Virus record (IMG/VR): IMGVR_UViG_3300022700_000234
Span: 1-23,315 of that record
Origin: a virus
Length of the DNA stretch: 23,315 bases
Direction: 5' to 3' (one strand)
The notes beneath the pieces are model-generated. The model did not search any database and had not been told where the DNA came from. It saw only the letters and a program-made list of their open reading frames with translations. Made by a program: the position numbers and the translations under genes. Numbering within the stretch: the stretch's first letter is position 1; every line of letters starts with the position of its first letter. Shown in pieces: positions 2,946 through 22,684 of the stretch.

Positions 2946-3222
2946 ACGCCTCGGCCGCGAGCTGGTATTCCGGCCCAGGCGTCTTCACCCACACGCCTTC
3001 ACGATTCTCCACCGCCCGCCTGGCGCGCTCTGGCACGCCCTCGTCTGTGAGCACTTCGGCCAGCTCGGGCGGATGAACCACCGTCCAATCGCGCCGCGTC
3101 ACAACAACACGCACCCCGGCATATGTCAGCACGACGCTCGAGGCATGAACGGTCAGCTCCTCGACGTCATCGTCCCGCACTGCAAGCAAGATCCGAAGCC
3201 GATCGTGTCCAGAAAAGCTCAT
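2920..3222 (-). CDS. Hypothetical protein, last gene of the sigma-factor operon
   Basis: A 100-residue protein that I do not recognise. It has no signal peptide or membrane segment and looks like a compact alpha/beta protein, with strands such as RILLAVRDDD and VVLTYAGVRVVVTRRDW followed by an acidic/basic helical C-terminus. Its ATG (3222) overlaps the stop of the sigma-factor gene in an ATGA arrangement, and a GAGGA ribosome binding site lies inside the end of that gene, so it is almost certainly co-translated with the sigma factor. That coupling makes a role as a partner or regulator of the sigma factor conceivable, but nothing in the sequence proves it. The 3' end runs 26 bases into the convergent VRR-NUC gene. 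Confidence 0.7.
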   Translation of the reverse strand: MSFSGHDRLRILLAVRDDDVEELTVHASSVVLTYAGVRVVVTRRDWTVVHPPELAEVLTDEGVPERARRAVENREGVWVKTPGPEYQLAAEAFRRELHSS

Positions 3223-4007
3223 ATCAGATCCTCGATTTTCAGGCCCATGTTCCGCAGTTCGATAGCAAGATATCGAAGCGCCTGTTTCTCAAGCTCCGTC
3301 ACCCAAGTCCGGCTGACACCGAGCTCGACAGCAATATTCTCGAGAGACATTTTCGTCTCCAAAAAATACCGTCGCTTCAAAACATAACGCTCGCGGTCGT
3401 CGAGCTTGTTCAAAAGCCCTTCGATGAGCTCATTCACCGTTGCGCGATCGACCGCATCCTCGGCGCTCTCGCATTCCGAAACAAGCTGAACCCCCGTTTC
3501 TTCTTCGCTGTCCGAAGACTCCGAAGCCAGCGTCTTGCGGCCGTTCCTCAGGTTCATGGCGCGGGCGGCGTGCTCGGGAGAAACACCGAGGTCGCGTGCG
3601 GCGAGTTCAACCGCGCGCGGACCACTCCACCCTTCGTTCTCATAGCTGACGACGAGCCCGGAGATTTCTTGCTGAAGACGTCTCTCTTTCTCGCCCTTCG
3701 CAATAGTCATTTGTGACCAATTCTGCTGAGCGTGTCTCTGGACATACGAGCGTATCCACTCGTAAGCGCATCCAGAAAATTGCCCTTTCTCGGGGTCATA
3801 AACATTGGCGGCATGAACGATTCCCGCGAGGCCCTCGGACACAAGGTCTTCGCGACTTATTCCGGACCATGCCGCCGTCGGTGTTGCTTGCTTATGAACC
3901 AGCCCCTTGCAGGAATCGACGAGGCTTTTCATGGCCCTCTCATCGCGGGACTCCTGCCATGCCAGGGCCCACATTGTCTGTTTGTCTTTGAGAGTGAGCT
4001 GTTCCAT
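3219..4007 (-). CDS. RpoH-like sigma-70 family RNA polymerase sigma factor
   Basis: A 262-residue sigma factor. Region 2 is recognisable as SREDLVSEGLAGIVHAANVYDPEKGQFS followed by AYEWIRSYVQRHAQQNWSQM (about residues 50-100), which parallels the DLIQEG...FDP...WIR...WS block of RpoH. The next part, TIAKGEKERRLQQEI, resembles the RpoH-box region. A region 3-like helix (VELAARDLGVSPEHAARAM) follows, and region 4 is LDDRERYVLKRRYFL...SLENIAVELGVSRTWVTELEKQALRYL, with a helix-turn-helix for -35 binding. Length is slightly below the RpoH norm of about 285-300. I prefer the ATG at 4007, with AAAGGAA at good spacing, over the TTG at 4037. It lies in an operon behind an HNH gene and before a 100-residue protein. 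It is the natural candidate to recognise the five repeated promoter-like sites ahead of the late genes. Confidence 0.88.
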   Translation of the reverse strand: MEQLTLKDKQTMWALAWQESRDERAMKSLVDSCKGLVHKQATPTAAWSGISREDLVSEGLAGIVHAANVYDPEKGQFSGCAYEWIRSYVQRHAQQNWSQMTIAKGEKERRLQQEISGLVVSYENEGWSGPRAVELAARDLGVSPEHAARAMNLRNGRKTLASESSDSEEETGVQLVSECESAEDAVDRATVNELIEGLLNKLDDRERYVLKRRYFLETKMSLENIAVELGVSRTWVTELEKQALRYLAIELRNMGLKIEDLI

Positions 4008-9508: not shown

Positions 9509-9536
9509 GGCAGGTAGTGAAGTAGATGGGGCCTTT

Positions 9537-9866: not shown

Positions 9867-10208
9867 ATGACGATCCGTCCAAAACGGGAAAATCAACTTT
9901 CTCATAGGGCATTGAAAAACAAAGATAAAAGCCGCTTGGCTATGACGATATGCCGATTGACGATTTTCCCAGAGACCCTCCTATAGGAATGGTCTAAAAC
10001 TAACTTTTAGGCATATATGATAATATTATTACTTTTTCCGCGCACGCGGGGGAATAAAAGAACCATATAGGCAAAATACTTAATTTTGATAGCGCTCTAT
10101 AGAGACCTTTCCGGGAAAGCACCGGATCGTCATATCGTCATAGTGAAATGGAAAAAGGCCCAGGTTTTTCGGTGGGTTTTTGCGTATGACGATTTTCCCG
10201 ATCGTCAT
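9867..10208. other. Candidate replication origin: iteron-like repeats flanking an AT-rich core
   Basis: The octamer ATGACGAT, or its complement ATCGTCAT, occurs exactly six times: 9867-9874, 9942-9949, 10126-10133, 10134-10141 (directly adjoining the previous copy), 10186-10193 and 10201-10208. A near copy, TTGACGAT, is at 9957-9964. A longer 13-mer, TGACGATTTTCCC, is shared by 9958-9970 and 10187-10199. The last two octamers form an inverted repeat with a 7-base spacer. Between the clusters, about 9985-10100 is strongly AT-rich and contains a CCGCG-CA-CGCGG hairpin (10038-10049) and the palindrome CTCTATAGAG (10095-10104). Iterons, an AT-rich unwinding region and an adjacent replicative helicase together are typical of an origin. 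The repeats could alternatively be repressor operators controlling the divergent transcripts. No convincing gene lies in the gap 9828-10275. Confidence 0.65.
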
Positions 10209-10275
10209 GCGTCGTCCCGACTTCGCCTTTTCAGTTGCCAGCCTATGTCCCGGGCGCACACTGAAAAGGAAGGCT

Positions 10276-10617: not shown

Positions 10618-10630
10618 CCTCGACCAATGA

Positions 10631-10654
10631 CCCCGGCCCGGCGCCGGGGTTTTT
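10631..10654 (+). terminator. Rho-independent terminator
   Basis: CCCCGGC (10631-10637) pairs with GCCGGGG (10643-10649) around a 5-base loop, followed by five T residues. It lies 13 bases after the stop of the gene ending at 10617. Confidence 0.9.
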
Positions 10655-10711: not shown

Positions 10712-10963
10712 ATGAAAGGTAAGCAAATGAACGCAGTAATATGTAAAGACCGGACGCAGATGGAAAGCATACGAAATCTCGGCCTTGTCAGCAGTTGCAT
10801 GTTGCTGTGCCCGGAGCTGAAACTCTTTCGGATTCTGACGTTTCGGAAGGCGATCATCATGCCAGGCGTCGACGTCAATCAGGATGTTGAGGGAATGAAG
10901 CTCCGAACCCTTATCGAACAGCGCCAGAAAACTTTTCTCGATGCGGAAATTATCTTCTTGTGA
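10712..10963 (+). CDS. Small hypothetical protein
   Basis: An 83-residue frame with GGGAG 7 bases before its ATG. The product has IRNLGLVSSCMLLCPELKLFRILTFRKAIIMPGVDV followed by a charged helix, LRTLIEQRQKTFLDAEIIFL. A longer minus-strand frame crosses the same bases but reads as composition noise. The TGA stop sits inside the first operator-like repeat. Family unknown; being the last gene before the terminase block, it could be a small early regulator. Confidence 0.55.
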   Translation: MKGKQMNAVICKDRTQMESIRNLGLVSSCMLLCPELKLFRILTFRKAIIMPGVDVNQDVEGMKLRTLIEQRQKTFLDAEIIFL

Positions 10964-11058
10964 TACACAACATATTGACAACAAAATCACCAAACATCAA
11001 TATATTGCGGTGTGTAGTTAATCGCGGGCTAAGTTGTGTGACACAACATATTGTGTCA
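10958..11058. promoter_or_regulatory. Operator-like repeats upstream of the terminase genes
   Basis: The 13-mer ACACAACATATTG occurs twice, at 10965-10977 and 11041-11053. Each copy is the right part of a palindrome: TTGTG-ATA-CACAA at 10958-10970 and TTGTGT-G-ACACAA at 11034-11046. The second copy also forms the perfect 20-base inverted repeat TGACACAACATATTGTGTCA (11039-11058). The palindrome CAATATATTG lies between them at 10998-11007. The layout suggests two binding sites for a dimeric DNA-binding protein. No repressor gene is identifiable in the window. Confidence 0.55.
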
Positions 11059-11234
11059 AAACGCCGAGGGACCCTGTGCCCCATACCACATATAGTGGGT
11101 ATGCGGGCGGCACCATAGTTCTCTCGATATAGAAATTTTCGAATACCCCCTTAACAACAACAGGCCCCGCGCCCGGTCGGCAAGACGCGGAAAAGAAAGG
11201 ATAAAGCCGCGTCCCACGGGCGGGTCGGGCTGTT
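11059..11234. other. Gene-free leader before the terminase; likely cos region
   Basis: No gene is seen here. An imperfect inverted repeat, CATACCAC to GTGGGTATG, lies near 11083-11104. In lambda-type phages the packaging site cos lies directly before the small terminase gene, and this is the matching position, but I cannot point to the cut site. Confidence 0.35.
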
Positions 11235-11247
11235 AAGCGTCATATCC
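11218..11247 (+). promoter_or_regulatory. Putative phage-sigma late promoter 1 (terminase)
   Basis: AAGCGTCATATCC at 11235-11247, 23 bases before the small-terminase ATG. At the position where other copies have GCGCGA (11218-11223) this one has GGGCGG, so its upstream element is the weakest of the five. Confidence 0.65.
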
Positions 11248-11270
11248 TGAAAAAGCCATGAGGCGCAGGT

Positions 11271-11825
11271 ATGACTCAGGATCCTAACAAATGCACATTG
11301 TCCGTCGCGGAGCGATGGCTCGGCACGTCTCGTCAGACCCTGACGAAGTATATCCGGGATCAAGGCGCGCCGTATGTCTCCGCGCCGGAGGGCAAGGGCG
11401 AGGGCTGGGTCGTGTCGGTTCCGAAGCTCCACGCATGGCTCATCGAAAAGCGCGAAAAGGAGGCGGAGCAGAAAGTCCTCGACAAGCTGGCCCCGGATCC
11501 CGAATCGCCGACCGGCGAGATGAGCAAGGAAGAAGCCCAGAGGCGCCGCGCCGTGGCCGACGCATTCATGGCCGAAATCAAACTTGACCGCGAGGCGGGC
11601 CGCGTGGTGCCGATCGAACTGGTAAAGCCAGCGCTGGTGTCGGTCTTGGCGCCAGTTCGCAAGCGGCTCATGGAATATCCGCAAAAAATCGGTCGTGAGA
11701 TCAACAACCGCTTCGGCGTGGATCCGAATGCCGCGGCGGATGTGGCGCGCGGGCTCGTCGACAACGAACTCGAGGCTCTTCAAGCTGAAAAGGTGAGGCT
11801 GCCCGACGATCCGGAGTCCGGATGA
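11271..11825 (+). CDS. Terminase small subunit, Nu1-like
   Basis: A 184-residue DNA-packaging protein. The N-terminus (LSVAERWLGTSRQTLTKYIRDQGAPYV...WVVSVPKLHAWLIEKRE, about residues 8-60) is a winged helix-turn-helix like that of lambda Nu1, which binds the packaging site. The middle is a charged helix with EAQRRRAVADAFMAEIKLDREAGRVVPIELV, the usual oligomerisation and linker part of this family. The C-terminus contacts the large subunit in lambda. Length matches Nu1 (181). The stop overlaps the large-subunit start, so the two are translationally coupled. It is the first gene after late promoter candidate 1. Confidence 0.88.
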   Translation: MTQDPNKCTLSVAERWLGTSRQTLTKYIRDQGAPYVSAPEGKGEGWVVSVPKLHAWLIEKREKEAEQKVLDKLAPDPESPTGEMSKEEAQRRRAVADAFMAEIKLDREAGRVVPIELVKPALVSVLAPVRKRLMEYPQKIGREINNRFGVDPNAAADVARGLVDNELEALQAEKVRLPDDPESG

Positions 11826-13822
11826 TGAGCGAGGCGCACTTCCACGAAAGATATCCGGAATCTGAACAGGCCCTGGCGGAGGCATTGCTTTCGGCGCGTC
11901 ATCAGGCCTTGGAGCCGTCTCCGAAGCTGACGTTGCCGGAGTGGGTTGAAGAGCATGGGTATCTGTCAGGCGAAAGCTCGGCGGAGATCGGGAAGTTCAA
12001 ACCGTTCGGGTATCAGGTCGGCCTCATGGAAGGGATGACGGATCCTTCGGCACATACGGTCGTTTTCCAGAAAGGAACGCGGGTCGGATACACCATGGTC
12101 GCAAATTTTTTGGTGGGCTATCACCTCGAGCACGACCCGACGACGGTTCTTTTTGTGCTCCCAACAGCGGATAATGTCAGCGAATGGATGAAGGACAGCT
12201 ACCTTCCGATGATCCGCGACACGCCGGCCTTGGCGGCGATCTCTGGCGGCGGCACTGCCGATGACGACAAATACAACAAATTCACGAGCCGCGGTTCCGT
12301 TCTCCGGGCCCGGGGTGCGTATAGCGCTGACACCTTCAGGCGCGTCACGAGCCGAATAAACATCGGCGACGAGATCGACGCCGACGGGTGGGGCACGGGC
12401 GGCTCGAAGACCCAGGGCGACAAGCTCAAGCTCCTCAATGAGAGGGGCAAAACATACTGGAACCGAAAGCTCATCTTGGGATCCACGCCCCTCGTGAAAG
12501 GCAGGAGCAGGATCGAGACCCAGTTCCTTCGGGGAGACCAGCGGCGGTATTTCGTACCATGTCCGCACTGCACGGAAGCGAACGGCGGCGAGCTGGACGG
12601 GTGGCAGATCCTGCAATGGGGCGACGGCGTGTCGTTCGGCATCCGCTACAAAGACGACCCCGAAAACCCGGAGTATATCTGCCGGCATTGCGGAGTCGGT
12701 ATAGAGGAAACCTGGAAGCCGTGGATGGATGCCCGCGGCGAGTGGCGCCCGACGGCCCAGGGCGAGCCCGGCGTCATCTCATACCACATCTCTGCGCTTT
12801 ACAGCCTGTTCCCGAACGCCGGCTGGAAACACCTCGTCCAAGAGTGGCTTGAAGCGAAGGACAACCCGGAGCTTCTCCAGCCTTTCGTAAACAACGTTCT
12901 TGGCGAAACCTTCGAGCTCAAGACGAACGCGAAGCGACATGAGCCGCACGAACTGCAGGAGCGCCTGGTTCGAGAGTTCGAAGCCGAGGTGCCGCAGGGG
13001 GTCAGGCTCATAACCGCCGGCGTCGATGTCCAGTCGAAAGACGGCGGCCGGTTCGAGGTCTCGTTCTACGGGTGGGGCGCCGGCGAACGGTCTGTCTGTC
13101 TTTCGCACATGATACTCGACCAGTATCTTCTGAAAGACCCTGAAGCCTGGGAAGAGCTGAAGCGCGTCCTGGGACGCGGATTTCGGATGCGAGACGGGCG
13201 GCTGTTGCGAGCCGAGTCTGTGGGCGTCGATCACGGCGGGCATTATCCAGATGACGTGATCGACTTCTGCTCGAAGAACGCGCACCGGAACTGGTATGCC
13301 GTGAAGGGGCACGGCTCGAAGGGCAAGGGAACCCGGAGGGATGCCGATCGGATCGTGCCGCGCATGACGCCAGCGCCGGACAAGCCCTGGTCAATTGACG
13401 TAAATCTCATCAAAGACAGGATTTTCCAGCGACTTCACGATGAACCGGAGAAGCCTGGCGGTATCCTTTTTCCGGACAGCGTGCCCGAAGGCTCCGTTCA
13501 GTTTGACAAGGCATTTTTCACGCGGCTGACGCGTGAGAAGCAGATCCCGGTCCAGGGTGAGCCCGGGGCGTTCTACTGGTCATCCCCGCAGGATCAAGAA
13601 CCGTGGGATTGTTTGGTTTATGCCTATGCCGCCATGGTCATACTGAAAAGCCGCTCGAAGATCGCCGCGGCAAAGGTCGCGCCGCAGAAGAAGAGAGCGG
13701 CGCCGGAGAAATCCGAACCTGAAAAGGCACCTTCTGAGACCAAAAACCAGAAACCAGCGGCTTCCACGGCCAAGCCAAAGCCCAAAAGAAAATCACCTCG
13801 CGTTCGGGTCGCGCGATACTGA
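11822..13822 (+). CDS. Terminase large subunit, GpA family
   Basis: A 666-residue packaging ATPase-nuclease, close to the lambda gpA length of 641. The deviant Walker A is QKGTRVGYT (83-91), matching the KxARVGYS form of lambda. Walker B is INIGDEID (179-186). The segments FVPCPHC (about 245) and YICRHCG (about 290) give a CxxC pair of the zinc type found in this family. The nuclease half carries ITAGVDVQSK, VGVDHGGHYPDDVIDFC and a final WDCLVYAYAAM, consistent with the RNase H-like metal site. The last 50 residues are a Lys/Pro/Ala-rich tail. An ATGATG start overlaps the small-subunit stop. The enzyme translocates DNA into the prohead through the portal and cuts at the packaging site. Confidence 0.95.
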   Translation: MMSEAHFHERYPESEQALAEALLSARHQALEPSPKLTLPEWVEEHGYLSGESSAEIGKFKPFGYQVGLMEGMTDPSAHTVVFQKGTRVGYTMVANFLVGYHLEHDPTTVLFVLPTADNVSEWMKDSYLPMIRDTPALAAISGGGTADDDKYNKFTSRGSVLRARGAYSADTFRRVTSRINIGDEIDADGWGTGGSKTQGDKLKLLNERGKTYWNRKLILGSTPLVKGRSRIETQFLRGDQRRYFVPCPHCTEANGGELDGWQILQWGDGVSFGIRYKDDPENPEYICRHCGVGIEETWKPWMDARGEWRPTAQGEPGVISYHISALYSLFPNAGWKHLVQEWLEAKDNPELLQPFVNNVLGETFELKTNAKRHEPHELQERLVREFEAEVPQGVRLITAGVDVQSKDGGRFEVSFYGWGAGERSVCLSHMILDQYLLKDPEAWEELKRVLGRGFRMRDGRLLRAESVGVDHGGHYPDDVIDFCSKNAHRNWYAVKGHGSKGKGTRRDADRIVPRMTPAPDKPWSIDVNLIKDRIFQRLHDEPEKPGGILFPDSVPEGSVQFDKAFFTRLTREKQIPVQGEPGAFYWSSPQDQEPWDCLVYAYAAMVILKSRSKIAAAKVAPQKKRAAPEKSEPEKAPSETKNQKPAASTAKPKPKRKSPRVRVARY

Positions 13823-13840
13823 ACAGAAAGCGTCATATCC
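13811..13840 (+). promoter_or_regulatory. Putative phage-sigma late promoter 2 (gpW-portal)
   Basis: GCGCGA at 13811-13816, 11 bases, then AAGCGTCATATCC at 13828-13840; the gpW-like ATG follows 23 bases later. The upstream element lies in the last codons of the large terminase. A CCCGGGAAATAGAACCCGGG inverted repeat fills the short leader and may act on the transcript. Confidence 0.72.
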
Positions 13841-13863
13841 CGGGAAATAGAACCCGGGATTCC

Positions 13864-14124
13864 ATGGCGCAAATTCGTTTCAGAACAGTCGATCGGCCGA
13901 AGCTCGAAGAAATGCTCGACACTCTCTACGAGTGCCTGGGCAGTGGTAACGCGCAAATTTCCCACAATGGGAACACGGTTTCCATCAGCAAGCCGAGCGA
14001 AATCCGCATCACAATCTCGGACATCGAGAATGAGCTCGACCGCCGGGACCGCATCGCTGCGGCAGCCACGCCGCGATCGCCCCTGTCTCCGCAATACCCC
14101 ATCGTCAGCAAGGGGTGGAACTGA
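13864..14124 (+). CDS. Head-tail joining protein, gpW-like
   Basis: An 86-residue protein between the large terminase and portal genes, the position of lambda gene W (68 residues). It has an N-terminal helix (DRPKLEEMLDTLYECLGS), a beta hairpin (AQISHNGNTVSI) and a second helix (SEIRITISDIENELDRRDRIAAA), the alpha-beta-beta-alpha arrangement expected for gpW, which plugs below the portal after packaging. The C-terminal tail is Pro/Ser rich. Its stop and the portal start form TGATG. Confidence 0.78.
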   Translation: MAQIRFRTVDRPKLEEMLDTLYECLGSGNAQISHNGNTVSISKPSEIRITISDIENELDRRDRIAAAATPRSPLSPQYPIVSKGWN

Positions 14125-15677
14125 TGTCTCGCAAACCCCGCGTTCGATTCAAGAAGAAAGTCCTGGCTCCGGCGCCGGCGGTTCCCGGGTTTTCGGCCAA
14201 GTATGATGCGGCTGGCACCGGAAGGCGCGCGAAGAACTGGGAGAACGCCACCGGCGAGGGCCCGGTGACCGCGCTTTCAAGAGACCATGACACGATCCGG
14301 AAGCGGTGCCGCCACGAGTTCCAGAACAATCCCTACGGCGGGCGGATTGCTGATGTTGTCTCGGGAGCGACCGTCGGCGAGGGCATCAAGCCCAACTTCC
14401 GCAAGCTTGGCGACGAGGCCGAGCAAATCCAGGCATGGTGGGATCAGTGGGCCGAGCAAGTCGATGCTGACGGCGTAGCCGATTTTTACAGCATGCAGGA
14501 TCTCGCAAGTCGCGAGTTCTTCGCCGCTGGCGAGGTGTTCTTCCGAAAGCGCCGGAGGGCTATCGCCCGAGATCCGAACAACATGACGCCACGCGAGCGC
14601 CAAGACGCGCACCTCGTGGCTCCTCTTCAGCTTCAGATGCTGCCGGGCGAAATGGTCCCGACAAACGACCACCTGAACGGGGCGAAGTCGGGCATCGTTT
14701 TCAAAGGGCCTGGTCGTCGGTCGGCCTACCGCTTTCTCCGCGAGCATCCTGGCGAGTATGTCAGCATGAACGCCGCAGACAAAGTGACGGCGGACGAGAT
14801 CCCGGCCGAGGATGTCATGCATGTTTTCAAGCCCAGTCGGGTCGGCGCCATCCGCGGCGAGCCCTGGCTTGTCCGCGGCCTGATCCCGCTCAACGAGCTC
14901 GACGCATACTATGACGCGGCTCTCGTGCGCCACAAACTGAACGCGATGGTGACCTGGTGGGTAGAGACGCCGAACGCCGGCGGCTCCGAAGACGCGCCGG
15001 CTTCGTATGATGACGAAGGAAACCCCCTCGATGCCGAGGGAAATCTGTGGGAGCCGCAAGACCCGGTAGATCTTCTTCCTGAAGTCCAGCCTGGCGCGGT
15101 TCTGCCACTGCCGCCAGGCTACAAAGCGAACGCGTCCGCGCCCCAGGAAGTCGGCGGTCAGTTCGACGTCTTCACCAAGCGTCAAATGCAGCGCATTTGC
15201 TCTGCCGTCTCGGTCCCGTATGAGCTCGTTTCCGAAGACACCTCGGACACAAACGAGCGCATGCTTCGCGTGAAGCTTCTCCAATTCTACCGGAACGTCA
15301 AACAGTGGCGCGGCATGCTCATCTCGCGTTTCTGCAGGCCGGCTTTCAAGGCGTTTCTCGAAGCACTTGAAGCGTCCGGAAAGTGGTCGCCCGCCCCTGG
15401 CAAGACCATCGACGACTATGTGCGCGCGGTTTCGTGGGTCGGTGAGCCGACAATCCACATTTACCCGAAACAGGAAATCGAAACGGACATCCTGGCGATC
15501 GCGAACGTCCTGAAGTCTCCATCCCAGGTCATTATCGAGCGCGGTGGGGATCCGGATACCGTCTTCGAACAGTGGGCCGCTGACATGGAAAAAATGCGGG
15601 ATCTCGGCATTGCGCCGGAAGACCTCGTGTCGCGCTTGTCAAAGCAGAATCCGGGGCCTGAAAGCGACGACGAATAA
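14124..15677 (+). CDS. Portal protein, lambda gpB family
   Basis: A 517-residue portal protein, near the 533 of lambda gpB. Recognisable family segments are the early AGTGRRAKNWENATGEGPVTALSRDHDTIRKRCRHEFQNNPYGGRIADVVSGATVGEGI, the core FAAGEVFFRKRRR, QLQMLPGEMVP, the HVFKPSRVGAIRGEPWLVRGLIPLNELDAYYDAALVRHKLNAM segment and a late SVPYELVSEDTSDTNERMLRVKLLQFYRN. I prefer the ATG at 14124, with GGGGTGG upstream, over the GTG at 14115. Twelve copies would form the ring at the capsid vertex through which DNA passes. It is coupled to the gpW-like gene by the overlapping stop and start. Confidence 0.94.
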   Translation: MSRKPRVRFKKKVLAPAPAVPGFSAKYDAAGTGRRAKNWENATGEGPVTALSRDHDTIRKRCRHEFQNNPYGGRIADVVSGATVGEGIKPNFRKLGDEAEQIQAWWDQWAEQVDADGVADFYSMQDLASREFFAAGEVFFRKRRRAIARDPNNMTPRERQDAHLVAPLQLQMLPGEMVPTNDHLNGAKSGIVFKGPGRRSAYRFLREHPGEYVSMNAADKVTADEIPAEDVMHVFKPSRVGAIRGEPWLVRGLIPLNELDAYYDAALVRHKLNAMVTWWVETPNAGGSEDAPASYDDEGNPLDAEGNLWEPQDPVDLLPEVQPGAVLPLPPGYKANASAPQEVGGQFDVFTKRQMQRICSAVSVPYELVSEDTSDTNERMLRVKLLQFYRNVKQWRGMLISRFCRPAFKAFLEALEASGKWSPAPGKTIDDYVRAVSWVGEPTIHIYPKQEIETDILAIANVLKSPSQVIIERGGDPDTVFEQWAADMEKMRDLGIAPEDLVSRLSKQNPGPESDDE

Positions 15678-15689
15678 TTTTCGCGGACG

Positions 15690-15719
15690 GCGCGAAGTTC
15701 AAGAAAAAGCGTCATATCC
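15690..15719 (+). promoter_or_regulatory. Putative phage-sigma late promoter 3 (protease-capsid)
   Basis: GCGCGA at 15690-15695, 11 bases, then AAGCGTCATATCC at 15707-15719; the protease ATG follows 18 bases later. It occupies the 60-base gap after the portal gene. Confidence 0.75.
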
Positions 15720-15737
15720 AGAAAAACGAGGAATGCG

Positions 15738-16766
<1,029 letters not shown>

Positions 16767-16779
16767 AAAGGAAGAGATC

Positions 16780-17823
16780 ATGAATCTTTTTGACCACGAA
16801 AACTTCACCGGCACGGCGCTCACGACCCGCGCGAACGATGCGGAGCTCTTCCCGTTCGTCGAGTCCCAGCTTGCGGCTTTCTTCGAAACGGACAGCGTGC
16901 GCACGGACACCGTCCAGGCCGACCGTGAGAAGTTCGGTTCCGCGCTCCTGCCTGGCGTCGCTCGCGGCACGACTGCCGGCAGTGTTGCCTCCTCGCGCTC
17001 GCGTCAGACGAAGCCGGTGAATGGCTTCAAGATCGGCGACAAGATCGAGCTGACGCCCGCCGAGATCGCCGGCATCCGCCAAACCGGTCTCGTCAATGGC
17101 GAGCAGGTCGCGCTGGAAACCTACCAGTCGAAGCTCGACAAGCGCCTGGCCGAGAAGGCGGCCAACATGGACAAGACCCAGGAATTCCTGCGCTTCACCA
17201 CTCTGCGCGGCGTTACCAAGTTTCCCCTGCAGGGCGGTGGGTTCGACGAGCTCGACTGGCGCGCAGTATGGGGCCTTCCTGCCGCTCCGGCCCCCGTCGA
17301 ACTGAAGCTCGACGAGGCTTCGCCGAAGTCCGGCGCCCTGCGCACGCGCTTCACCGGCATGAAGCGCACCACCCGTGACAACATGGGCGGACGCAACCCC
17401 ACGGGCTATCGCGCCCTCTACGGCAAGAACGCCTGGGATCTGTTCGTCGAGCACAAGGAAGTGCGTGAAGGCTTCGCTCGTCAGGACAGCGGTGCGTATC
17501 TCACCGCCGACGGCTTCGAAGCGGTCCGCTTCAACGGCATCGAGCACATGGAATACCGCGGCGAGGGCATCGGCGACGACGAGGTTCTGCTGTTCCCGAC
17601 CAGCGTCACTGGCATGCTCTCGACCATCTTCACGACCGGCGACAAGTTCCCCTTCGTCGGCGAAGAAGGTCTTCCGCGGTTCGTCGTTCCGCGCAACGCC
17701 GACAACCCGTTCAGCGACTTCGGCGAAGGTGCCCAGTGGGAGATCAGCTCGATCCCGGCATACATCAACCTTTGGCCCGAGGCCGTGGTTTCGGCGGTCG
17801 GCACCACGAACCCCGCACCGTAA
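16780..17823 (+). CDS. Major capsid protein, lambda gpE family
   Basis: A 347-residue protein against 341 for lambda gpE, in the expected place after the protease-scaffold gene. Family features include NRANDAELFPFVES-like opening residues (LTTRANDAELFPFVESQLAAFFETDSVRTDTV), the middle LRTRFTGMKRTTRD and YRALYGKNAWDLFVEHKEVREGF, and the C-terminal LPRFVVPRNADNPFSDFGEGAQWEISSIPAYINLWPEAVV, typical of the HK97-fold gpE group. An AAGGAAGAG ribosome binding site precedes the ATG. Codon use is the most biased in the window, as expected of a highly expressed gene. No separate decoration gene of gpD type lies between protease and capsid. Confidence 0.93.
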   Translation: MNLFDHENFTGTALTTRANDAELFPFVESQLAAFFETDSVRTDTVQADREKFGSALLPGVARGTTAGSVASSRSRQTKPVNGFKIGDKIELTPAEIAGIRQTGLVNGEQVALETYQSKLDKRLAEKAANMDKTQEFLRFTTLRGVTKFPLQGGGFDELDWRAVWGLPAAPAPVELKLDEASPKSGALRTRFTGMKRTTRDNMGGRNPTGYRALYGKNAWDLFVEHKEVREGFARQDSGAYLTADGFEAVRFNGIEHMEYRGEGIGDDEVLLFPTSVTGMLSTIFTTGDKFPFVGEEGLPRFVVPRNADNPFSDFGEGAQWEISSIPAYINLWPEAVVSAVGTTNPAP

Positions 17824-17828
17824 AAAGG

Positions 17829-17851
17829 AGGGCCCTGCGGGGCCCTTTTTT
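17829..17851 (+). terminator. Rho-independent terminator after the major capsid gene
   Basis: AGGGCCC (17829-17835) pairs perfectly with GGGCCCT (17840-17846) around TGCG and runs into six T residues. It begins 5 bases after the capsid stop and ends just before the next gene, which has no late-promoter motif of its own, so it probably works as a partial terminator that lets some polymerase pass. Confidence 0.9.
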
Positions 17852-17856
17852 CTCTC

Positions 17857-18441
17857 ATGAACAACGCTTTCGCAAACGCACTCATGCGCTCACCTCGAGC
17901 CTGTCCGGCTCAGTATATCGGGCCGGGCGGTTCTGCTGTGTCTATGCGGTGCGTCTTCGAAGACAGCTCGGCGGAGGTGCGGGTGAATGCCGGGGTCGAT
18001 GTCATCGCAGACAGCGCCGAAGGGTCTGTTCTCGAAAGCGTGGATCCGGAGATCGGTGGCATCATCCAGCATGGAGACACCGAATACGAGATCCGCAACA
18101 TCGAGCCATCTTCGGCCCCTGGTCTTCTCGAGCTCGACCTGCTCCGCGTCTCCGGCGAGCCTGTCGAGGCCCATAACCTCGCAGACGCAATCATGCGGTC
18201 GGGTGCCGAGCAGATACTTCTCGACGGCCAGCCCGTCTCCGCTCAAGTCGCGCGCCGAGCCAAGGTCCTGGAGGGCGATGCGTGGGAGGGCCAGGTCGTC
18301 GCGCTCCGAACCCTGTTCTCCGTGAGAAACGAGGATCTCGGACCCGCCGGCGCCGGGTCCTTCATCGACTACGCTGGCCGCGAGTATGTTGTCGATCGCG
18401 TCATGCGCGACGGCACCGGCCTCACCGTTCTCGTGTGCTGA
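17857..18441 (+). CDS. Head-tail joining protein, gpFII-like, apparently with a duplicated domain
   Basis: A 194-residue protein in the position of the lambda FI/FII genes. The first half contains IIQHGDTEYEIRNIEPSSAPGLLELDLLR and the second half SFIDYAGREYVVDRVMRDGTGLTVLVC, which look like two versions of the same beta module (a gpFII-like fold that binds the capsid-tail interface). The lambda protein has one such domain in 117 residues, so this may be a tandem fusion. The start is an ATG close behind the capsid terminator. The ribosome binding site is weak and partly made of terminator sequence, so its translation may depend on read-through. Family assignment rests on position and these motifs. 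Confidence 0.62.
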   Translation: MNNAFANALMRSPRACPAQYIGPGGSAVSMRCVFEDSSAEVRVNAGVDVIADSAEGSVLESVDPEIGGIIQHGDTEYEIRNIEPSSAPGLLELDLLRVSGEPVEAHNLADAIMRSGAEQILLDGQPVSAQVARRAKVLEGDAWEGQVVALRTLFSVRNEDLGPAGAGSFIDYAGREYVVDRVMRDGTGLTVLVC

Positions 18442-18442
18442 C

Positions 18443-18934
18443 ATGCGCCTCGAGGGTTTCAAGAAAGGCCAGTTTCGCGACAGCTTCGAAAAAGAGCTGA
18501 CGCGCGCACGGAAGAAGGCCGGCAAGAAGGTCGGCGGACTGATTGTCCGGGAGCGCCGTCGAAGGCTTGGCAAGGCAACAAGCCGAAGGAAGAAGGCCGT
18601 TCGGTATGTGACCGGCAAAAAGAATGGCCTGCTGGTTGTCATGGACCTGGCGCCTCTCGCTCGCGCCCGGGAATACGGAGAGACCATACGGCCGAGAACC
18701 GGGAAAAACCTTCTCGTCAGGACAGGCTACACTCCATCCCCCAGTGAGCCGGTATTCACTGTGCCCGGCGGGTATGTGCTTGCTGGCTCTGGCAAGAAAA
18801 AGCGACTCGTCGGCACACTGAAAAGTTCGGTTGTCATTCCGCGAGCTTCGGAGTCCAGGCGACTGATACCGATCGCTGAAAAATACCTCGAACAATACGC
18901 AGACGAAATCGACAAGAACCTGTTTGGAGGGTGA
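18443..18934 (+). CDS. Minor tail / tail-completion protein (gpZ-like position)
   Basis: A 163-residue, very basic protein. The ATG at 18443 follows the previous stop by one base; a longer frame from 18386 overlaps the upstream gene and has no ribosome binding site. It has an Arg/Lys-rich amphipathic N-terminus (RARKKAGKKVGGLIVRERRRRLG) and a central LARAREYGETIRPRTGKNLLV, which resembles the HA..E.G..I.PK.GK.L.I segment of phage tail-completion proteins of the HK97 gp10/lambda Z kind. The C-terminal segment is LIPIAEKYLEQYADEIDKNL. It probably caps the head-proximal end of the tail. Confidence 0.62.
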   Translation: MRLEGFKKGQFRDSFEKELTRARKKAGKKVGGLIVRERRRRLGKATSRRKKAVRYVTGKKNGLLVVMDLAPLARAREYGETIRPRTGKNLLVRTGYTPSPSEPVFTVPGGYVLAGSGKKKRLVGTLKSSVVIPRASESRRLIPIAEKYLEQYADEIDKNLFGG

Positions 18935-18935
18935 A

Positions 18936-19370
18936 ATGGATAAAGCGCAGAAGATACTCGACGAGGTGGAGCGGATCGCGAACACCCTTGGCCCGGCTGT
19001 TGAAGTCGATCGCGGCGTCAATGTTCATTCGGACGGTCGGACGGATTTCCCCCTCATCGTTCTTCGAACCGGAGAGGAAGAAACAGCGCCGTCGGATTCA
19101 ACCCCCTTCCTGAAATGGGATCAGCGCTGGGTCGTTCGTCCTGCTCTCGAAGTTTATCTCAAGGACCGCGACAAAGCCGCACTGCGCGCCGAAGCAAGTC
19201 GGATCTGGTCCGAGTTTCGTGAAGCGGTTCGAGACGGGATCCTGACGACCGATCGCCGGCTTCTTGTTCAATCGGAGCTGCCCGGCGTGAAGCGCACAGT
19301 AGATCCTGCCGAGGGCCGGTCCGATATCGTCGTCATGACAATCGAAATGGAGTTTGTCTTTGATCGGTGA
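18936..19370 (+). CDS. Tail terminator-like protein (gpU-like position)
   Basis: A 144-residue protein; the ATG at 18936 has GGAGG five bases before it. It opens with a helix (MDKAQKILDEVERIANTL), then beta-strands (WDQRWVVRPALEVYL), another helix (KAALRAEASRIWSEFREAV) and closing strands (RSDIVVMTIEMEFVFDR). This alpha-beta order and the final strand are usual for the tail-terminator family (lambda gpU), and the gene lies directly before the tail tube, as gpU does. Assignment is by fold pattern and order. Confidence 0.6.
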   Translation: MDKAQKILDEVERIANTLGPAVEVDRGVNVHSDGRTDFPLIVLRTGEEETAPSDSTPFLKWDQRWVVRPALEVYLKDRDKAALRAEASRIWSEFREAVRDGILTTDRRLLVQSELPGVKRTVDPAEGRSDIVVMTIEMEFVFDR

Positions 19371-19372
19371 TC

Positions 19373-19402
19373 GCGCGAACTCCCCTGAAAAGCGTCATAT
19401 AC
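19373..19402 (+). promoter_or_regulatory. Putative phage-sigma late promoter 4 (tail tube)
   Basis: GCGCGA at 19373-19378, 11 bases, then AAGCGTCATATAC at 19390-19402 (one mismatch in the 13-mer); the tail-tube ATG follows 22 bases later. Confidence 0.72.
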
Positions 19403-19424
19403 AGAAAAACAGAGAGGCTTCAAT

Positions 19425-20183
19425 ATGGCAAAATCATTCCTCGGCGGCCGCCAGAAAATCAAGATCCGGACTGGCCAGATTTACGTGCTTCGCGATGGCG
19501 AAGACCGGTATGCTTCCGTCGGCGACATCGAGACCGCCGCGATCAGCATGGACACACAAACCGAGGACGTCTTCAAGCCGTTCCGCGGCGCGCGCGTGAA
19601 AGCCAAGACTTTCACTACGGAAATCGGCGGCTCGCTTTCGCTGACCCTACTGAACACCACGGCGCGGAACCTCGCCATGGCGCTTCAGGGGGAAGAAGAG
19701 GAGTTCCTGCAGACCGCGCAAGCATCGCTCTCTATGAGTTTCACCGATGTCGTTGCCGGCCAGCTTTTCGACCTGGGAGGCATCCGGGCTGAGAATGTGG
19801 TGGTGACCGAGGACGGAACGGCGCCGCTGGTCGAGGACGTCGACTACGAGCTCAACGCCGCAACTGGAACCGGTGTATGGCTGAAAAGCCACCCCGCCGC
19901 CCAGGTCGATTACGACCTGGCCGAAGTCGTCTCGAGCGACGGCGTCGAGGCCGTCTCGATGCTGACGAATGCCGAGGGCGTTCGGGGCACGGTCATGATC
20001 ATCGGCGAGGATGACGAGGGGAACAGCTGGAAGATGATGGATGTCCCCGTCGAGCTTCGCGCAAGCGGCGACGTCAATCTCATCTCCTCCGAGGTCAGCA
20101 AGATCGAGCTCGAAGGAAGCCTGGTCCAGGGCCCGAACCCGACATACCCCTTCGGCCGCAGCATCGAAATCCCGAAGGTGTAA
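19425..20183 (+). CDS. Major tail tube protein
   Basis: A 252-residue protein in the lambda gene V position, near that protein's 246 residues. Strand-rich sequence with FKPFRGARVKAKTFTTEIGGSLSLTLLNTTARNLAMALQGEEE, then YELNAATGTGVWLKS, and a C-terminus with SWKMMDVPVELRASGDVNLISSEVSKIELEGSLVQ is typical of siphophage tube proteins whose rings stack to form the tail lumen. It carries its own late-promoter candidate, fitting the high copy number a tube protein needs. The ribosome binding site AGAGAGG lies 8 bases upstream. Confidence 0.85.
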   Translation: MAKSFLGGRQKIKIRTGQIYVLRDGEDRYASVGDIETAAISMDTQTEDVFKPFRGARVKAKTFTTEIGGSLSLTLLNTTARNLAMALQGEEEEFLQTAQASLSMSFTDVVAGQLFDLGGIRAENVVVTEDGTAPLVEDVDYELNAATGTGVWLKSHPAAQVDYDLAEVVSSDGVEAVSMLTNAEGVRGTVMIIGEDDEGNSWKMMDVPVELRASGDVNLISSEVSKIELEGSLVQGPNPTYPFGRSIEIPKV

Positions 20184-20186
20184 AGC

Positions 20187-20516
20187 ATGGCACTTCACCT
20201 CAAGACGCTTTTCGCATCTGACGGGGCCGCGCTGCCGGCCCTGTCCTTCGACACTGCGGCAGTCCAGTCTGTCGCGGTTGCCGCGGATATCGCAGAGTCC
20301 GTGTCTCTCACCGCAGGTGTGTATTACATCATCTCGCGGGACTCGGACTTCTCCTTCACACACGGCGTCGGCGACCTTTCCGGCAATGTCCAGATCCCCT
20401 GGTTCAAGGACGTGTATCTTGAGCTCGTTCTCGTCGAGGATTCGGACTTCGCGATCAATATGCCCGCCGGCGTAGCAGGTGAGGTGATCGTAATTCCTGC
20501 GAAGGAGCACGCGTGA
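20187..20516 (+). CDS. Hypothetical virion-associated protein
   Basis: A 109-residue protein starting 3 bases after the tube gene. It is mainly beta-type, with VSLTAGVYYIISRDSDFSFTHGVGDLSG and VYLELVLVEDSDFAINMPAGVAGEVIVIPA. Such short beta-sandwich proteins next to tube or capsid genes are often decoration or tail-surface proteins; that role is inferred from context only. Its TGA overlaps the next gene's GTG/ATG start. Confidence 0.65.
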   Translation: MALHLKTLFASDGAALPALSFDTAAVQSVAVAADIAESVSLTAGVYYIISRDSDFSFTHGVGDLSGNVQIPWFKDVYLELVLVEDSDFAINMPAGVAGEVIVIPAKEHA

Positions 20517-21007
20517 TGTTCGGAATCGGCGGAGCAAGGCCTGTAAGCGGCGGTGGAGGTGTTGGTGGTGAATCCGCCACGCCGATTTTGCTCGGCGTTG
20601 CATACATTCAGCGGGATTCCGACCTGGCGCACAGCCTCCCCTATTCCCTTTACCTGGAGGGCTGCTCGTACAAAGTCACGAGCGGAGAAGTCGGATCTCT
20701 CGACAGTGCCACCGGTCGCGTAACTCTGCCGGTCGGATGTAAGATCGTAAAGCAGACCTTTCACGAGGCTGCTTCTGGTCTGTCTGGAAACAGGGCCGTC
20801 AATGTTCGGACGCAGACGTTCGAGCCATCCGGTGCGGGTATCGGAAACCTCGGGCAGAATGACACAAACGGCCTTCATGGGGTATCGACTATCGACGTCG
20901 AGAACGACGATTGGTTCGAGCCGATTTTCGTTTACCTTGCGTCAGCTGTTCTCGAGGGCAATGCCTACGGCGCCAAGCACATCGGTGTCCTGGAGTTTTA
21001 CGCATGA
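20516..21007 (+). CDS. Hypothetical virion-associated protein
   Basis: A 163-residue protein; the ATG at 20516 has GAAGGAG eight bases upstream, preferred over the GTG at 20513. The N-terminus is a flexible Gly/Ser-rich segment (GGARPVSGGGGVGGES), followed by beta-rich sequence with LYLEGCSYKVTSGEVGS and VETF-like strands, ending in IFVYLASAVLEGNAYGAKHIGVLEFYA. No family is recognised. Position and composition favour a structural or surface-displayed role. The stop overlaps the next start (ATGA). Confidence 0.65.
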   Translation: MFGIGGARPVSGGGGVGGESATPILLGVAYIQRDSDLAHSLPYSLYLEGCSYKVTSGEVGSLDSATGRVTLPVGCKIVKQTFHEAASGLSGNRAVNVRTQTFEPSGAGIGNLGQNDTNGLHGVSTIDVENDDWFEPIFVYLASAVLEGNAYGAKHIGVLEFYA

Positions 21008-21345
21008 ACACAGTCGAAATCGAGCGCATAAAGGCGCAACAAAACCTCCGCGCTGACGCAATGGGGGCCCAAGTATTCGAGGACCCCTACCACAAATATA
21101 TGGCCACACGAGTCGATGGCGGCTTTCTCGACCGGGAGCCGGGCCTGTCGCTTCCTCAGGGGGTGAAAGACTCCCTCGTGGAGATCCGGGACCGTGTCGA
21201 TCAACGAGACATTCAGAACGCGGTCATTTTCCACGAACTCTCAGTCGCGCATTTCGCAATCGACCGGGCTGCGGCCATGTATGAAAATGGCGACCTGACG
21301 AAAGATGAGGCTCTGTCGCAGATCTGGGCGCATAATCAAGCATAG
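21004..21345 (+). CDS. Hypothetical protein, end of the tail-tube operon
   Basis: A 113-residue, mostly helical and charged protein (MNTVEIERIKAQQNLRADAMGAQVFEDP...IQNAVIFHELSVAHFAIDRAAAMYENGDLTKDEALSQIWAHNQA). The ATG overlaps the previous stop. Family unknown. It could be a tail assembly factor, since lambda places its chaperone genes just after the tube, but the clear chaperone pair here lies further on at 22250. Confidence 0.62.
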   Translation: MNTVEIERIKAQQNLRADAMGAQVFEDPYHKYMATRVDGGFLDREPGLSLPQGVKDSLVEIRDRVDQRDIQNAVIFHELSVAHFAIDRAAAMYENGDLTKDEALSQIWAHNQA

Positions 21346-21417
21346 ATCGTAGCATGTTGACGATTGCTCATCTGGAAAGCTCAGGGTTGACTTCTACCGA
21401 AGCGAATAAATAAAAGA

Positions 21418-21444
21418 GAGGGGCGGATCCGTGATCCGCCCCTC
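21418..21444 (-). terminator. Strong bidirectional hairpin terminator
   Basis: A perfect 12-base stem, GAGGGGCGGATC (21418-21429) with GATCCGCCCCTC (21433-21444), loop CGT. On the minus strand it is followed by a U-rich run (complement of the A-rich 21405-21415), ending the inverted gene's transcript; on the plus strand the tail GGTTTCATC is weaker. Confidence 0.8.
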
Positions 21445-21470
21445 GGTTTCATCTTGAGAGCTGCGGGAAC

Positions 21471-21661
21471 GGGGAGTAGGGTCCCCATCCCCGGAGAAGA
21501 TACCAGGGCATCTTCGCAACCTCCTTCCGGCATCTTCCAGTGCCGGTCTGGCCTGCGAGGTCAGGATGATACCTCGGACGGGTCCCCATCATCTTCCCGT
21601 CCAAGTATTTCGAGGGAAGGGCTACCTTCCCTCGCTTCTGAGCCGCCTACGGGCGGCTCAG
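21471..21661. repeat. Chain of tandem inverted repeats (stem-loops)
   Basis: Between the terminator and the 3' part of the inverted gene there are consecutive inverted repeats: GGGGA/TCCCC (21471-21486), GAAGAT/ATCTTC (21496-21515), CCGGCA/TGCCGG (21527-21546), CGAGGT/ACCTCG (21556-21576), GGACGGG/CCCGTCC (21576-21602), CGAGGGAAGG/CCTTCCCTCG (21611-21634) and CTGAGCCGCC/GGCGGCTCAG (21638-21661). The last two have perfect 10-base arms and 4-base loops and sit inside coding sequence. Together with the 21418 terminator this makes eight stems in about 245 bases. The stretch 21346-21560 has no gene. Confidence 0.75.
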
Positions 21662-22103
21662 CTCGTTGGGGCAGAAGACCAATCATCCTCATGCCCTCAT
21701 CGGTAATGACAAACTTACCGGCCCCGGCTCGTTCGAAGACTCCAGCGTTCACAGCGTTCATCATCTGAGTGCGCATCCCACCCATGCTTACCTCATATCC
21801 TGCGCGCTCTGCCGCTTCCTGGAGCATCTCATATGTGAAGGGGGAATCTTTTTCCGTCACTGCCTTGCGATATATGCTTGTCCATTTTTCGTTTGCAGAT
21901 GCCCTGCCAACGTGCGTTTGTCTCGGCGCCGCGGCGTCCTCCTTGGCGCCAGTCATTATATTTAGGACTGATCGCAGTGTTTCCGCTTCAACGCCAAAAC
22001 GATCCTTGTCCCGCTGGGCTTTCTCAATGCGATCGTCAGCAGCGCGCATCTTGCGCTCCGCATCCTCAAGCATTTCCCGTATCTTGTGCTCAGATTCGCC
22101 CAT
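21561..22103 (-). CDS. Hypothetical protein: coiled coil plus winged-helix-like domain; inverted cargo gene among tail genes
   Basis: A 180-residue protein; the ATG at 22103 has AGGTGG upstream and is preferred over the longer start at 22139. Residues 1-60 form a charged coiled coil (SEHKIREMLEDAERKMRAADDRIEKAQRDKDRF). About residues 85-145 (WTSIYRKAVTEKDSPFTYEMLQEAAERAGYEVSMGGMRTQMMNAVNAGVFERAGAGKFVITDEGMRMIG) look like a winged helix, with a recognition-type helix and a beta wing. The C-terminal 35 residues are low-complexity and encoded by the stem-loop chain. No family is recognised. It runs against the surrounding late genes and has its own terminator, so it is probably an independently expressed moron. 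A DNA-binding or regulatory role is suggested only by the winged-helix pattern. Confidence 0.7.
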   Translation of the reverse strand: MGESEHKIREMLEDAERKMRAADDRIEKAQRDKDRFGVEAETLRSVLNIMTGAKEDAAAPRQTHVGRASANEKWTSIYRKAVTEKDSPFTYEMLQEAAERAGYEVSMGGMRTQMMNAVNAGVFERAGAGKFVITDEGMRMIGLLPQRAEPPVGGSEAREGSPSLEILGREDDGDPSEVSS

Positions 22104-22194
22104 GACACCACCTGTTCTGTTGGGTCCCTGATACAGCATTCCTGATGTGCGTCAATAGCAACAAACGAGATTTTCGTGCGTTTTGTTTCGCGCG

Positions 22195-22224
22195 CCGCGA
22201 GCAACGCTACGAAGCGTCATATCC
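22195..22224 (+). promoter_or_regulatory. Putative phage-sigma late promoter 5 (tail chaperone)
   Basis: CCGCGA at 22195-22200, 11 bases, then AAGCGTCATATCC at 22212-22224; the chaperone ATG follows 25 bases later. It restarts rightward transcription after the inverted gene. Confidence 0.75.
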
Positions 22225-22249
22225 TTCATGAAATCATAAAGGAGCCATC

Positions 22250-22684
22250 ATGTCCAATCTGTCAAAGCTGAAACGCGCGCCCGCCACACTCACGATCGAC
22301 GGCGAGGAAATCCAGGTTCATGCTCTGCGCCTTGGCGACATCTCGGCCATTCTGTCGAAATACCCGCGCGTTGCTCTCGCTTTCCAAGTGAAGGGGGAAG
22401 ACCGCGGACTTGCGATCGTCCGCGCGCTTGTCGAAGCCGGCGCGACGGCGGTGAATGATGTCATCGACGTGGGCACCCGAAGCGAATCCGGAACCGCCGC
22501 TGCCGCTGACCTCGACCCGCTCGACGAAGCGGAGATCCTTCTCGCCGTGTTCGAACGCACGCTGCCGGACGACGAGGAACGCCTGGAAAAGTTCAAGGCC
22601 CGGCTGACCGAACTCATGAACCGCCTGGCCGGGCCGGAGGCGGGTCAGGACAGCTCTGGGCAGAACTCGCCGACTTCCTCGTAA
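22250..22684 (+). CDS. Tail assembly chaperone, lambda gpG-like
   Basis: A 144-residue protein (lambda gpG is 140) immediately before the tape-measure gene. It opens MSNLSKLKRAPATLTIDGEEIQVHALRLGDISAILSKYPRVALAF, the usual start of alphaproteobacterial phage tail chaperones, with a helical middle and a charged helix DEERLEKFKARLTELMNRLAG. It would coat the tape-measure protein during tail assembly. GGAGCC is the ribosome binding site. The -1 frame beyond its end is open and conserved in style, giving a longer G-T product. Confidence 0.83.
   Translation: MSNLSKLKRAPATLTIDGEEIQVHALRLGDISAILSKYPRVALAFQVKGEDRGLAIVRALVEAGATAVNDVIDVGTRSESGTAAAADLDPLDEAEILLAVFERTLPDDEERLEKFKARLTELMNRLAGPEAGQDSSGQNSPTSS

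What the first reader, a model, noticed from the sequence alone, without database searches (positions are those of the whole stretch)
11218..22224. A phage-specific late promoter, GCGCGA-N11-AAGCGTCATATCC, repeated five times and probably read by the phage's own RpoH-like sigma factor
The 13-mer AAGCGTCATATCC occurs at 11235, 13828, 15707 and 22212, with a one-mismatch copy at 19390, each 18-25 bases before the first gene of a head or tail block (terminase, gpW-portal, protease-capsid, tail tube, tail chaperone). I found it nowhere else in the window. Four copies have GCGCGA or CCGCGA exactly 11 bases upstream (13811, 15690, 19373, 22195). This spacing stays fixed while the distance to the start codon varies, as expected of a transcription rather than translation signal. 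Counting CGTCATAT as the -10 gives a 14-base gap from the -35-like hexamer, close to the 13-17 known for RpoH promoters, whose -10 ends in CATnT. The sigma factor at 3219-4007 resembles RpoH in regions 2 and 4. Self-encoded sigma control of late genes is known in T4 and SPO1-type phages; in a lambda-like phage it would be unusual. That the sigma reads these sites is inference.
Basis: partly seen in the sequence, partly recalled or inferred. Interest (0 to 1): 0.88.

Follow-up and report, generated by a model that had tools for sequence, protein, structure and literature searches.

The report
Phage sigma factor's likely late promoters
A small bacterial virus carries five near-identical DNA switches, one before each block of its particle-building genes, laid out like heat-shock promoters but with altered recognition bases that fit the equally altered heat-shock-type sigma factor it encodes; this is very probably its own late-gene switch, a known kind of system with an unusual origin.

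Summary
AAGCGTCATATCC occurs four times exactly and once with one mismatch. Each copy lies 18-25 nt before a head or tail gene, and four have (G/C)CGCGA exactly 11 nt upstream. Five bipartite matches occur where shuffles give 0.02. Leave-one-out matrices rank every left-out site in the top five. The motif fills every late + strand gap of 40 nt or more, and two copies follow terminator-like hairpins.

New here: the sites have the exact register of the E. coli sigma-32 dnaKp1 promoter (hexamer -35 to -30, 14 nt, octamer -15 to -8, purine at +1). They keep CATnT at -12 to -8 but not the CTTGAA -35. The window's sigma (3219-4007) groups with RpoH in a tree. It has replaced all three sigma-32 residues shown elsewhere to be needed for the -35 element (E265T, R266W, R268T) and lost the RpoH box. 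The motif was not found beyond chance in 2.9 million viral contigs or about 85,000 genomes, so it is not a common host promoter.

That this sigma reads these sites remains inference: the phage is an orphan, so covariation could not be tested. Proven parallels exist (phages 7-11, phiEco32). Verdict: new variant of a known kind.

The parts
11218..11247 (+). late promoter copy 1 before terS-terL: GGGCGG-N11-AAGCGTCATATCC (weak -35); predicted start of transcript near 11253
13811..13840 (+). late promoter copy 2 before gpW-like gene and portal; -35 box overlaps the end of terL; predicted start near 13846
15690..15719 (+). late promoter copy 3 before head protease, major capsid and head-tail genes; predicted start near 15725
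19373..19402 (+). late promoter copy 4 before tail tube gene; 13-mer has one mismatch (ATATAC); predicted start near 19408
22195..22224 (+). late promoter copy 5 before tail (chaperone-like) gene, beyond a terminator and an opposite-strand gene; predicted start near 22230
3219..4007 (-). phage sigma factor, RpoH-derived (262 aa), with Sigma70_r2 and Sigma70_r4; proposed reader of the five promoters
11271..13822 (+). terminase small and large subunits (gpA type), served by copy 1
13864..15677 (+). gpW-position gene and portal protein, served by copy 2
15738..19370 (+). head maturation protease, major capsid, head-tail attachment and two further head-tail genes, served by copy 3
19425..21345 (+). 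tail tube gene and following tail genes, served by copy 4
22250..22684 (+). tail protein / tail assembly chaperone-like gene, served by copy 5
10629..10651 (+). intrinsic terminator-like hairpin upstream of the late region
21418..21444 (.). strong hairpin (12 pairs) with T-rich tails on both strands, between converging genes; ends the copy-4 operon

Best explanation
The five repeats are late promoters of an alphaproteobacterial-type tailed phage. Each has a -35 element (G/C)CGCGA at -35 to -30, a 14-nt spacer and a -10 element CGTCATAT at -15 to -8, and should start an mRNA 13-20 nt before a head or tail gene. They are most probably read by host core RNA polymerase carrying the phage's own sigma factor (3219-4007, - strand), a strongly diverged RpoH derivative. 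It would be made early, compete with the host sigma factors and switch on five late operons together. SHOWN: the repeats, their spacing and placement, the sigma gene, its place with RpoH, and the loss of the RpoH -35 contacts. INFERRED: that they are promoters (very likely), that this sigma reads them (likely), and the timing.
For: Five bipartite copies against 0.02 expected; leave-one-out always in the top five; hexamer significant on its own. One copy at the head of each late operon; all late gaps of 40 nt or more hold a copy, shorter gaps none; copies 1 and 5 follow terminator-like hairpins. No sigma-70-like promoter beyond chance in the late half: 2 found, 3.7 expected. Register identical to sigma-32 dnaKp1 of PMC10216364: -35/-30 hexamer, 14 nt, octamer with C-12, A-11, T-10 and T-8, purine at +1 in all five. 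Sinorhizobium RpoH1 has CTTGAA-N15-16-CCTATAT (PMC4843759), and GCGCGA-N15-GTCATAT fits that spacing. The sigma has region 2 and region 4 domains above Pfam cut-offs, folds as a sigma factor (mean pLDDT 85) and groups with RpoH at 100/99 support. Its residues at the sigma-32 -35 contacts E265, R266 and R268 are T, W and T, and at the extended -10 contact K130 it has E, matching promoters that keep CATnT but lack CTTGAA and CCCC. The motif is not found beyond chance in viral or cellular collections, so no common host sigma uses it.
Against: No transcription data. The phage is an orphan: no relative of the sigma or terminase close enough to test co-occurrence or covariation. The sigma lies on the opposite strand about 7 kb from the first site, and whether it is expressed early is unknown. 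-10 pocket residues (F104C, H107E) are also unusual, so its melting activity is unproven. Copy 1 has a poor -35. CGTCAT also occurs in a repeat array at 9867-10211 without the -35 box, which could point to another DNA-binding protein.
Confidence: 0.7

Rival explanations
1. The repeats are promoters, but read by a host holoenzyme (sigma-70 or host RpoH) helped by a phage activator that binds GCGCGA or CGTCAT; the phage sigma serves other genes.
For: CGTCAT recurs in a repeat array in the early control region 9867-10211, as an activator or initiator site might; CATATC is a poor but possible -10.
Against: No common host-type -35 (CTTG or TTGACA) at any site; no activator-like protein recognised among the window proteins scanned; early repeats have T, not G, before CGTCAT and no GCGCGA in register; no conserved second -10 downstream of the motif.
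Confidence: 0.17
2. They are asymmetric repressor sites (stoperator- or operator-like) that silence late genes in a lysogen, as the 13-mers of cluster A mycobacteriophages do.
For: 13-mer, asymmetric, one orientation relative to transcription, in short intergenic gaps: the defining look of stoperators (PMC9283540).
Against: Second element GCGCGA at fixed 11-nt spacing; only in front of operon starts; all confined to the late region, no exact copy at early promoters; no repressor gene recognised in the window proteins scanned; stoperator phages have more than twenty sites.
Confidence: 0.07
3. They are translation-linked repeats (start-associated sequences) or other leader signals.
For: All lie shortly upstream of start codons, in one orientation.
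Against: They end 18-25 nt, not 3-7 nt, before the start codon; they contain no Shine-Dalgarno core, and a separate one lies between motif and start at several genes; start distance varies while the -35/-10 distance is fixed (SAS definition PMC3203893); no Rfam match.
Confidence: 0.03
4. Chance or copied-block repeat without function.
For: Only five copies; one genome.
Against: Shuffles and leave-one-out tests exclude chance; spacers and flanks differ between copies, so they are not one duplicated block.
Confidence: 0.01

Closest known systems
Salmonella phage 7-11 late promoters and sigma gp47 (PMC8948821)
   Same: Phage-encoded sigma factor; eight bipartite promoters (GTAAtg-16-aCTA) upstream of late genes; [quoted passage not shown]
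   Different: Different promoter sequence and, by description, a different sigma (a distant homologue of phiEco32 gp36); here nothing is experimentally shown; the sigma here is RpoH-derived and the head genes are lambda-like.
phiEco32 gp36 promoters (tAATGTAtA; PMC8948821, PMC4331800)
   Same: Phage sigma with repeated promoters before middle and late operons; starts 6-8 nt after the element.
   Different: Single-element promoters and a sigma without region 4 homology; here two elements and a region 4.
RpoH (sigma-32) and its promoters in Proteobacteria (PMC10216364, PMC4843759)
   Same: Same promoter register, CATnT core of the -10, phylogenetic placement of the sigma.
   Different: -35 is GCGCGA instead of CTTGAA, -15 to -13 is CGT instead of CCC; RpoH box and -35 contact residues lost; targets are phage late genes.
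Stoperators of cluster A mycobacteriophages (PMC9283540) and start-associated sequences of cluster K (PMC3203893)
   Same: 13-bp asymmetric repeats in intergenic gaps, one orientation.
   Different: Those have more than twenty copies or lie 3-7 bp from the start codon; no -35-like second element at fixed spacing.

Membership tests
phage-encoded sigma with cognate late promoters (7-11/phiEco32 kind) | phage genome encodes a sigma-70 family protein | tested here: met
   Sigma70_r2 29.5 bits (cut-off 24), Sigma70_r4 42.8 bits (cut-off 24.1); PHROG 351
phage-encoded sigma with cognate late promoters (7-11/phiEco32 kind) | repeated promoter-like motif before late operons | tested here: met
phage-encoded sigma with cognate late promoters (7-11/phiEco32 kind) | transcripts start at the motif during infection | not testable with these tools
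   needs RNA mapping
phage-encoded sigma with cognate late promoters (7-11/phiEco32 kind) | sigma directs core polymerase to the motif | not testable with these tools
   needs in vitro transcription; covariation in relatives not possible because none were found
RpoH (sigma-32) family | passes the curated RpoH equivalog cut-off | tested here: not met
   TIGR02392 95.9 bits against 323.1; best match but far below
RpoH (sigma-32) family | groups with RpoH rather than RpoD/RpoS/FliA | tested here: met
   100/99 support, but long branch (2.0) and a possible long-branch join
RpoH (sigma-32) family | RpoH box QRKLFFNLR | tested here: not met
   ERRLQQEISGL at that place
RpoH (sigma-32) family | -35 contact residues E265, R266, R268 | tested here: not met
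   T, W, T (roles from PMC10216364)
RpoH-type promoters | -35 CTTG(AA) | tested here: not met
   GCGCGA/CCGCGA/GGGCGG
RpoH-type promoters | 14-nt spacer to an octamer ending CATnT at -8 | tested here: met
   all five sites
start-associated sequences | repeat ends 3-7 nt before start codon and contains the Shine-Dalgarno core | tested here: not met
   18-25 nt; no AGGAG in motif
stoperators | asymmetric 13-mers including copies at early promoters, bound by an encoded repressor | tested here: inconclusive
   asymmetric 13-mers met; no exact copy outside late region; repressor not recognised, and the genome is a fragment

The most novel reading that the evidence does not exclude
A phage captured a host heat-shock sigma factor (RpoH), stripped its heat-shock control box, rewired its -35 recognition helix (E265T, R266W, R268T) to read GCGCGA in place of CTTGAA while keeping the RpoH promoter geometry and CATnT core, and made it the master switch of five late operons in a phage with a lambda-type head module.
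Probability: 0.55. Interest if true: 0.62.

Novelty: new variant of a known kind. Interest (0 to 1): 0.52.

Why it matters
If true, both halves of a private transcription switch, promoter and sigma, are readable from one small uncultured phage genome. It shows a route by which a heat-shock sigma becomes a viral late sigma through changes in its -35 helix. It gives a clean test of sigma-promoter coevolution: three residue changes against a six-base element in a known structural register. It could also give an orthogonal sigma/promoter pair for alphaproteobacteria.

Tried and rejected
Exact bipartite motif in IMG/VR: 4 single hits, none repeated. L008 and L009 were looked at and lie inside open reading frames. 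Same in GTDB genomes: 4 single hits; the Neorhizobium and Bacteroidia ones lie inside called genes, and the two alphaproteobacterial genomes hold one 13-mer each. Close relatives of the sigma and terminase by peptide search: none. Terminase alignment search: best 40% identity, none with the sigma in the fetched flank. Sigma, terminase and tail tube against 385 alphaproteobacterial genomes: only 30-33% RpoH-like matches, terminases at 42% or less, nothing for the tube. Sigma alignment search found many small phage contigs with a sigma, eleven of them also with the same helicase family, but those fall outside the RpoH group in the tree, and the eight contigs examined showed no upstream repeat as strong as the window's. 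My first gene-calling repeat scan missed the window's own motif and was dropped for one that recovers it. Rfam and tRNA scans empty. Plasmid-borne sigma hits (Tardiphaga, Methylocystis, Azospirillum) are ordinary RpoH-like genes, not phage.

Full report
WHAT WAS CHECKED. The 13-mer AAGCGTCATATCC is at 11235, 13828, 15707 and 22212 and, with one mismatch, at 19390. With the upstream box, SCGCGA-N11-AAGCGTCATATCC gives five sites within three mismatches against 0.02 expected. Leave-one-out matrices place each left-out site in the top five of about 46,000 positions, at 15.8-30.9 bits against at most 12.1 for any other place. The upstream hexamer was found blind as the best conserved block in the 45 nt upstream of the 13-mer (GGGCGG, GCGCGA x3, CCGCGA; reached in 1 of 4000 shuffles and 0 of 20,000 random genomic sets), and a weaker GAAAAA-like block follows (36 of 4000).

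PLACEMENT. The copies precede terS-terL, the gpW-position gene and portal, protease-capsid-head joining genes, the tail tube block, and a tail chaperone-like gene. Among consecutive + strand late genes, the gaps of 41, 60 and 54 nt hold a copy, while those of 13, 33 and 3 nt and the overlaps hold none. A 12-pair hairpin with T-rich tails on both strands at 21418-21444 ends the fourth block, an opposite-strand gene follows, and the fifth copy restarts + strand transcription. A + strand terminator-like hairpin at 10629-10651 lies before the first copy. Sigma-70-like promoters in this half are no more frequent than in shuffles (2 against 3.7). These facts fit promoters and fit translation signals poorly: the start-codon distance varies (18-25 nt) and several genes have a separate ribosome-binding site between motif and start (sequence).

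REGISTER. Laid against the sigma-32 promoter dnaKp1 printed in PMC10216364, the five sites have the same geometry: hexamer at -35 to -30, exactly 14 nt, octamer at -15 to -8 with C-12, A-11, T-10 and T-8, and a purine at the predicted +1 in all five. Sinorhizobium RpoH1 promoters are CTTGAA-N15-16-CCTATAT (PMC4843759), and counted that way the gap here is 15. What differs is the -35 itself and the CCC of the extended -10.

THE SIGMA. The protein at 3219-4007 has sigma-70 regions 2 and 4. Its best NCBIfam model is RpoH, but at 95.9 bits against a cut-off of 323.1. Its best solved relative by sequence is E. coli sigma-32, 8hkc. An AlphaFold2 model has mean pLDDT 85 with a low pTM (0.45), as expected of domains joined by a flexible linker, and its Foldseek matches are mostly sigma factors. 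In a 90-sequence tree it falls with E. coli, Azospirillum, Tardiphaga and Methylocystis RpoH-type proteins and with sigmas of two large phages (100/99), away from the many other phage sigmas. Its branch is long and its join with the Vibrio phage sigma may be an artefact. The RpoH box is gone. At the three sigma-32 residues whose alanine mutants lose -35 binding and transcription (E265, R266, R268; PMC10216364) it has T, W and T, where the RpoH proteins of Azospirillum and Tardiphaga keep E, R and R; at K130, which contacts the extended -10, it has E, although that position varies widely among sigmas. Promoter and protein therefore depart from RpoH at the same contact surfaces and keep the same spacing. 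This is the strongest available argument that they belong together, but it is correlative and rests on one genome. Many other phage sigmas in the set also vary at these -35 positions, so loss of the contacts is not by itself special to this protein.

IS THE MOTIF A HOST SIGNAL? It is not found beyond chance elsewhere: four single matches in IMG/VR and four in about 85,000 genomes, and single copies in two whole alphaproteobacterial genomes. A promoter class used by a common host sigma should appear many times.

WHAT COULD NOT BE DONE. No relative close enough for a covariation test was found. The genome is a fragment. Small phage contigs with sigma genes are common in IMG/VR, and eleven share the window's helicase family, six of those also its VRR nuclease, but these sigmas fall outside the RpoH group and I found no repeat as strong as this one in the eight sigma-bearing contigs examined.

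KNOWN PARALLELS. Phage 7-11 has eight late promoters, GTAAtg-16-aCTA, read by its own sigma and proven in vitro; phiEco32 has tAATGTAtA (PMC8948821; PMC4331800). T4 and SPO1 are textbook cases (own knowledge). The kind of system is therefore known; the RpoH origin and changed -35 make this a variant. Rivals are stoperators, start-associated sequences and an activator-dependent host promoter; the last keeps some weight because CGTCAT also occurs in the early repeat array.

JUDGEMENT. Promoters: about 0.9. Read by the phage's own sigma: about 0.7.

Noticed in passing
window 9867-10211: Array of seven ATCGTCA(T) repeats in both orientations, some joined to GGGAAA, around AT-rich DNA between the divergent primase gene and the + strand genes; looks like replication iterons or an operator array and shares CGTCAT with the late motif.
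   Followed up: partly
window 10958-11053: Two copies of TTGTGnnACACAACATATTG 76 nt apart, with the palindrome TTGTGTGACACAA, just upstream of the late region; possible regulator or partition sites.
   Followed up: no
window 7-948: Truncated MobV/Mob_Pre-like relaxase gene at the edge of the contig (below curated cut-offs), which with the P4-type primase suggests a plasmid-like phase.
   Followed up: no
window 7193-9598: P4-family primase/helicase with an N-terminal helix-hairpin-helix stretch that resembles the tails of alphaproteobacterial ribosomal L21 and phasin proteins.
   Followed up: no
window 13839-13858: Perfect 6-bp stem CCCGGG-N8-CCCGGG in the leader of the gpW-position gene, directly after promoter copy 2; absent from the other leaders.
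   Followed up: no
L103, L164, L173, L101, L148, L116, L147, L149, L152, L104, L126: Metagenomic phage contigs that carry a sigma factor near a helicase of the window's family, six of them also with a VRR nuclease; their sigmas fall outside the RpoH group.
   Followed up: partly
window 21561-22139 (-): Opposite-strand gene inserted in the tail operon between a bidirectional terminator and promoter copy 5; coiled-coil-like protein with no family match, possibly a recently gained gene.
   Followed up: no
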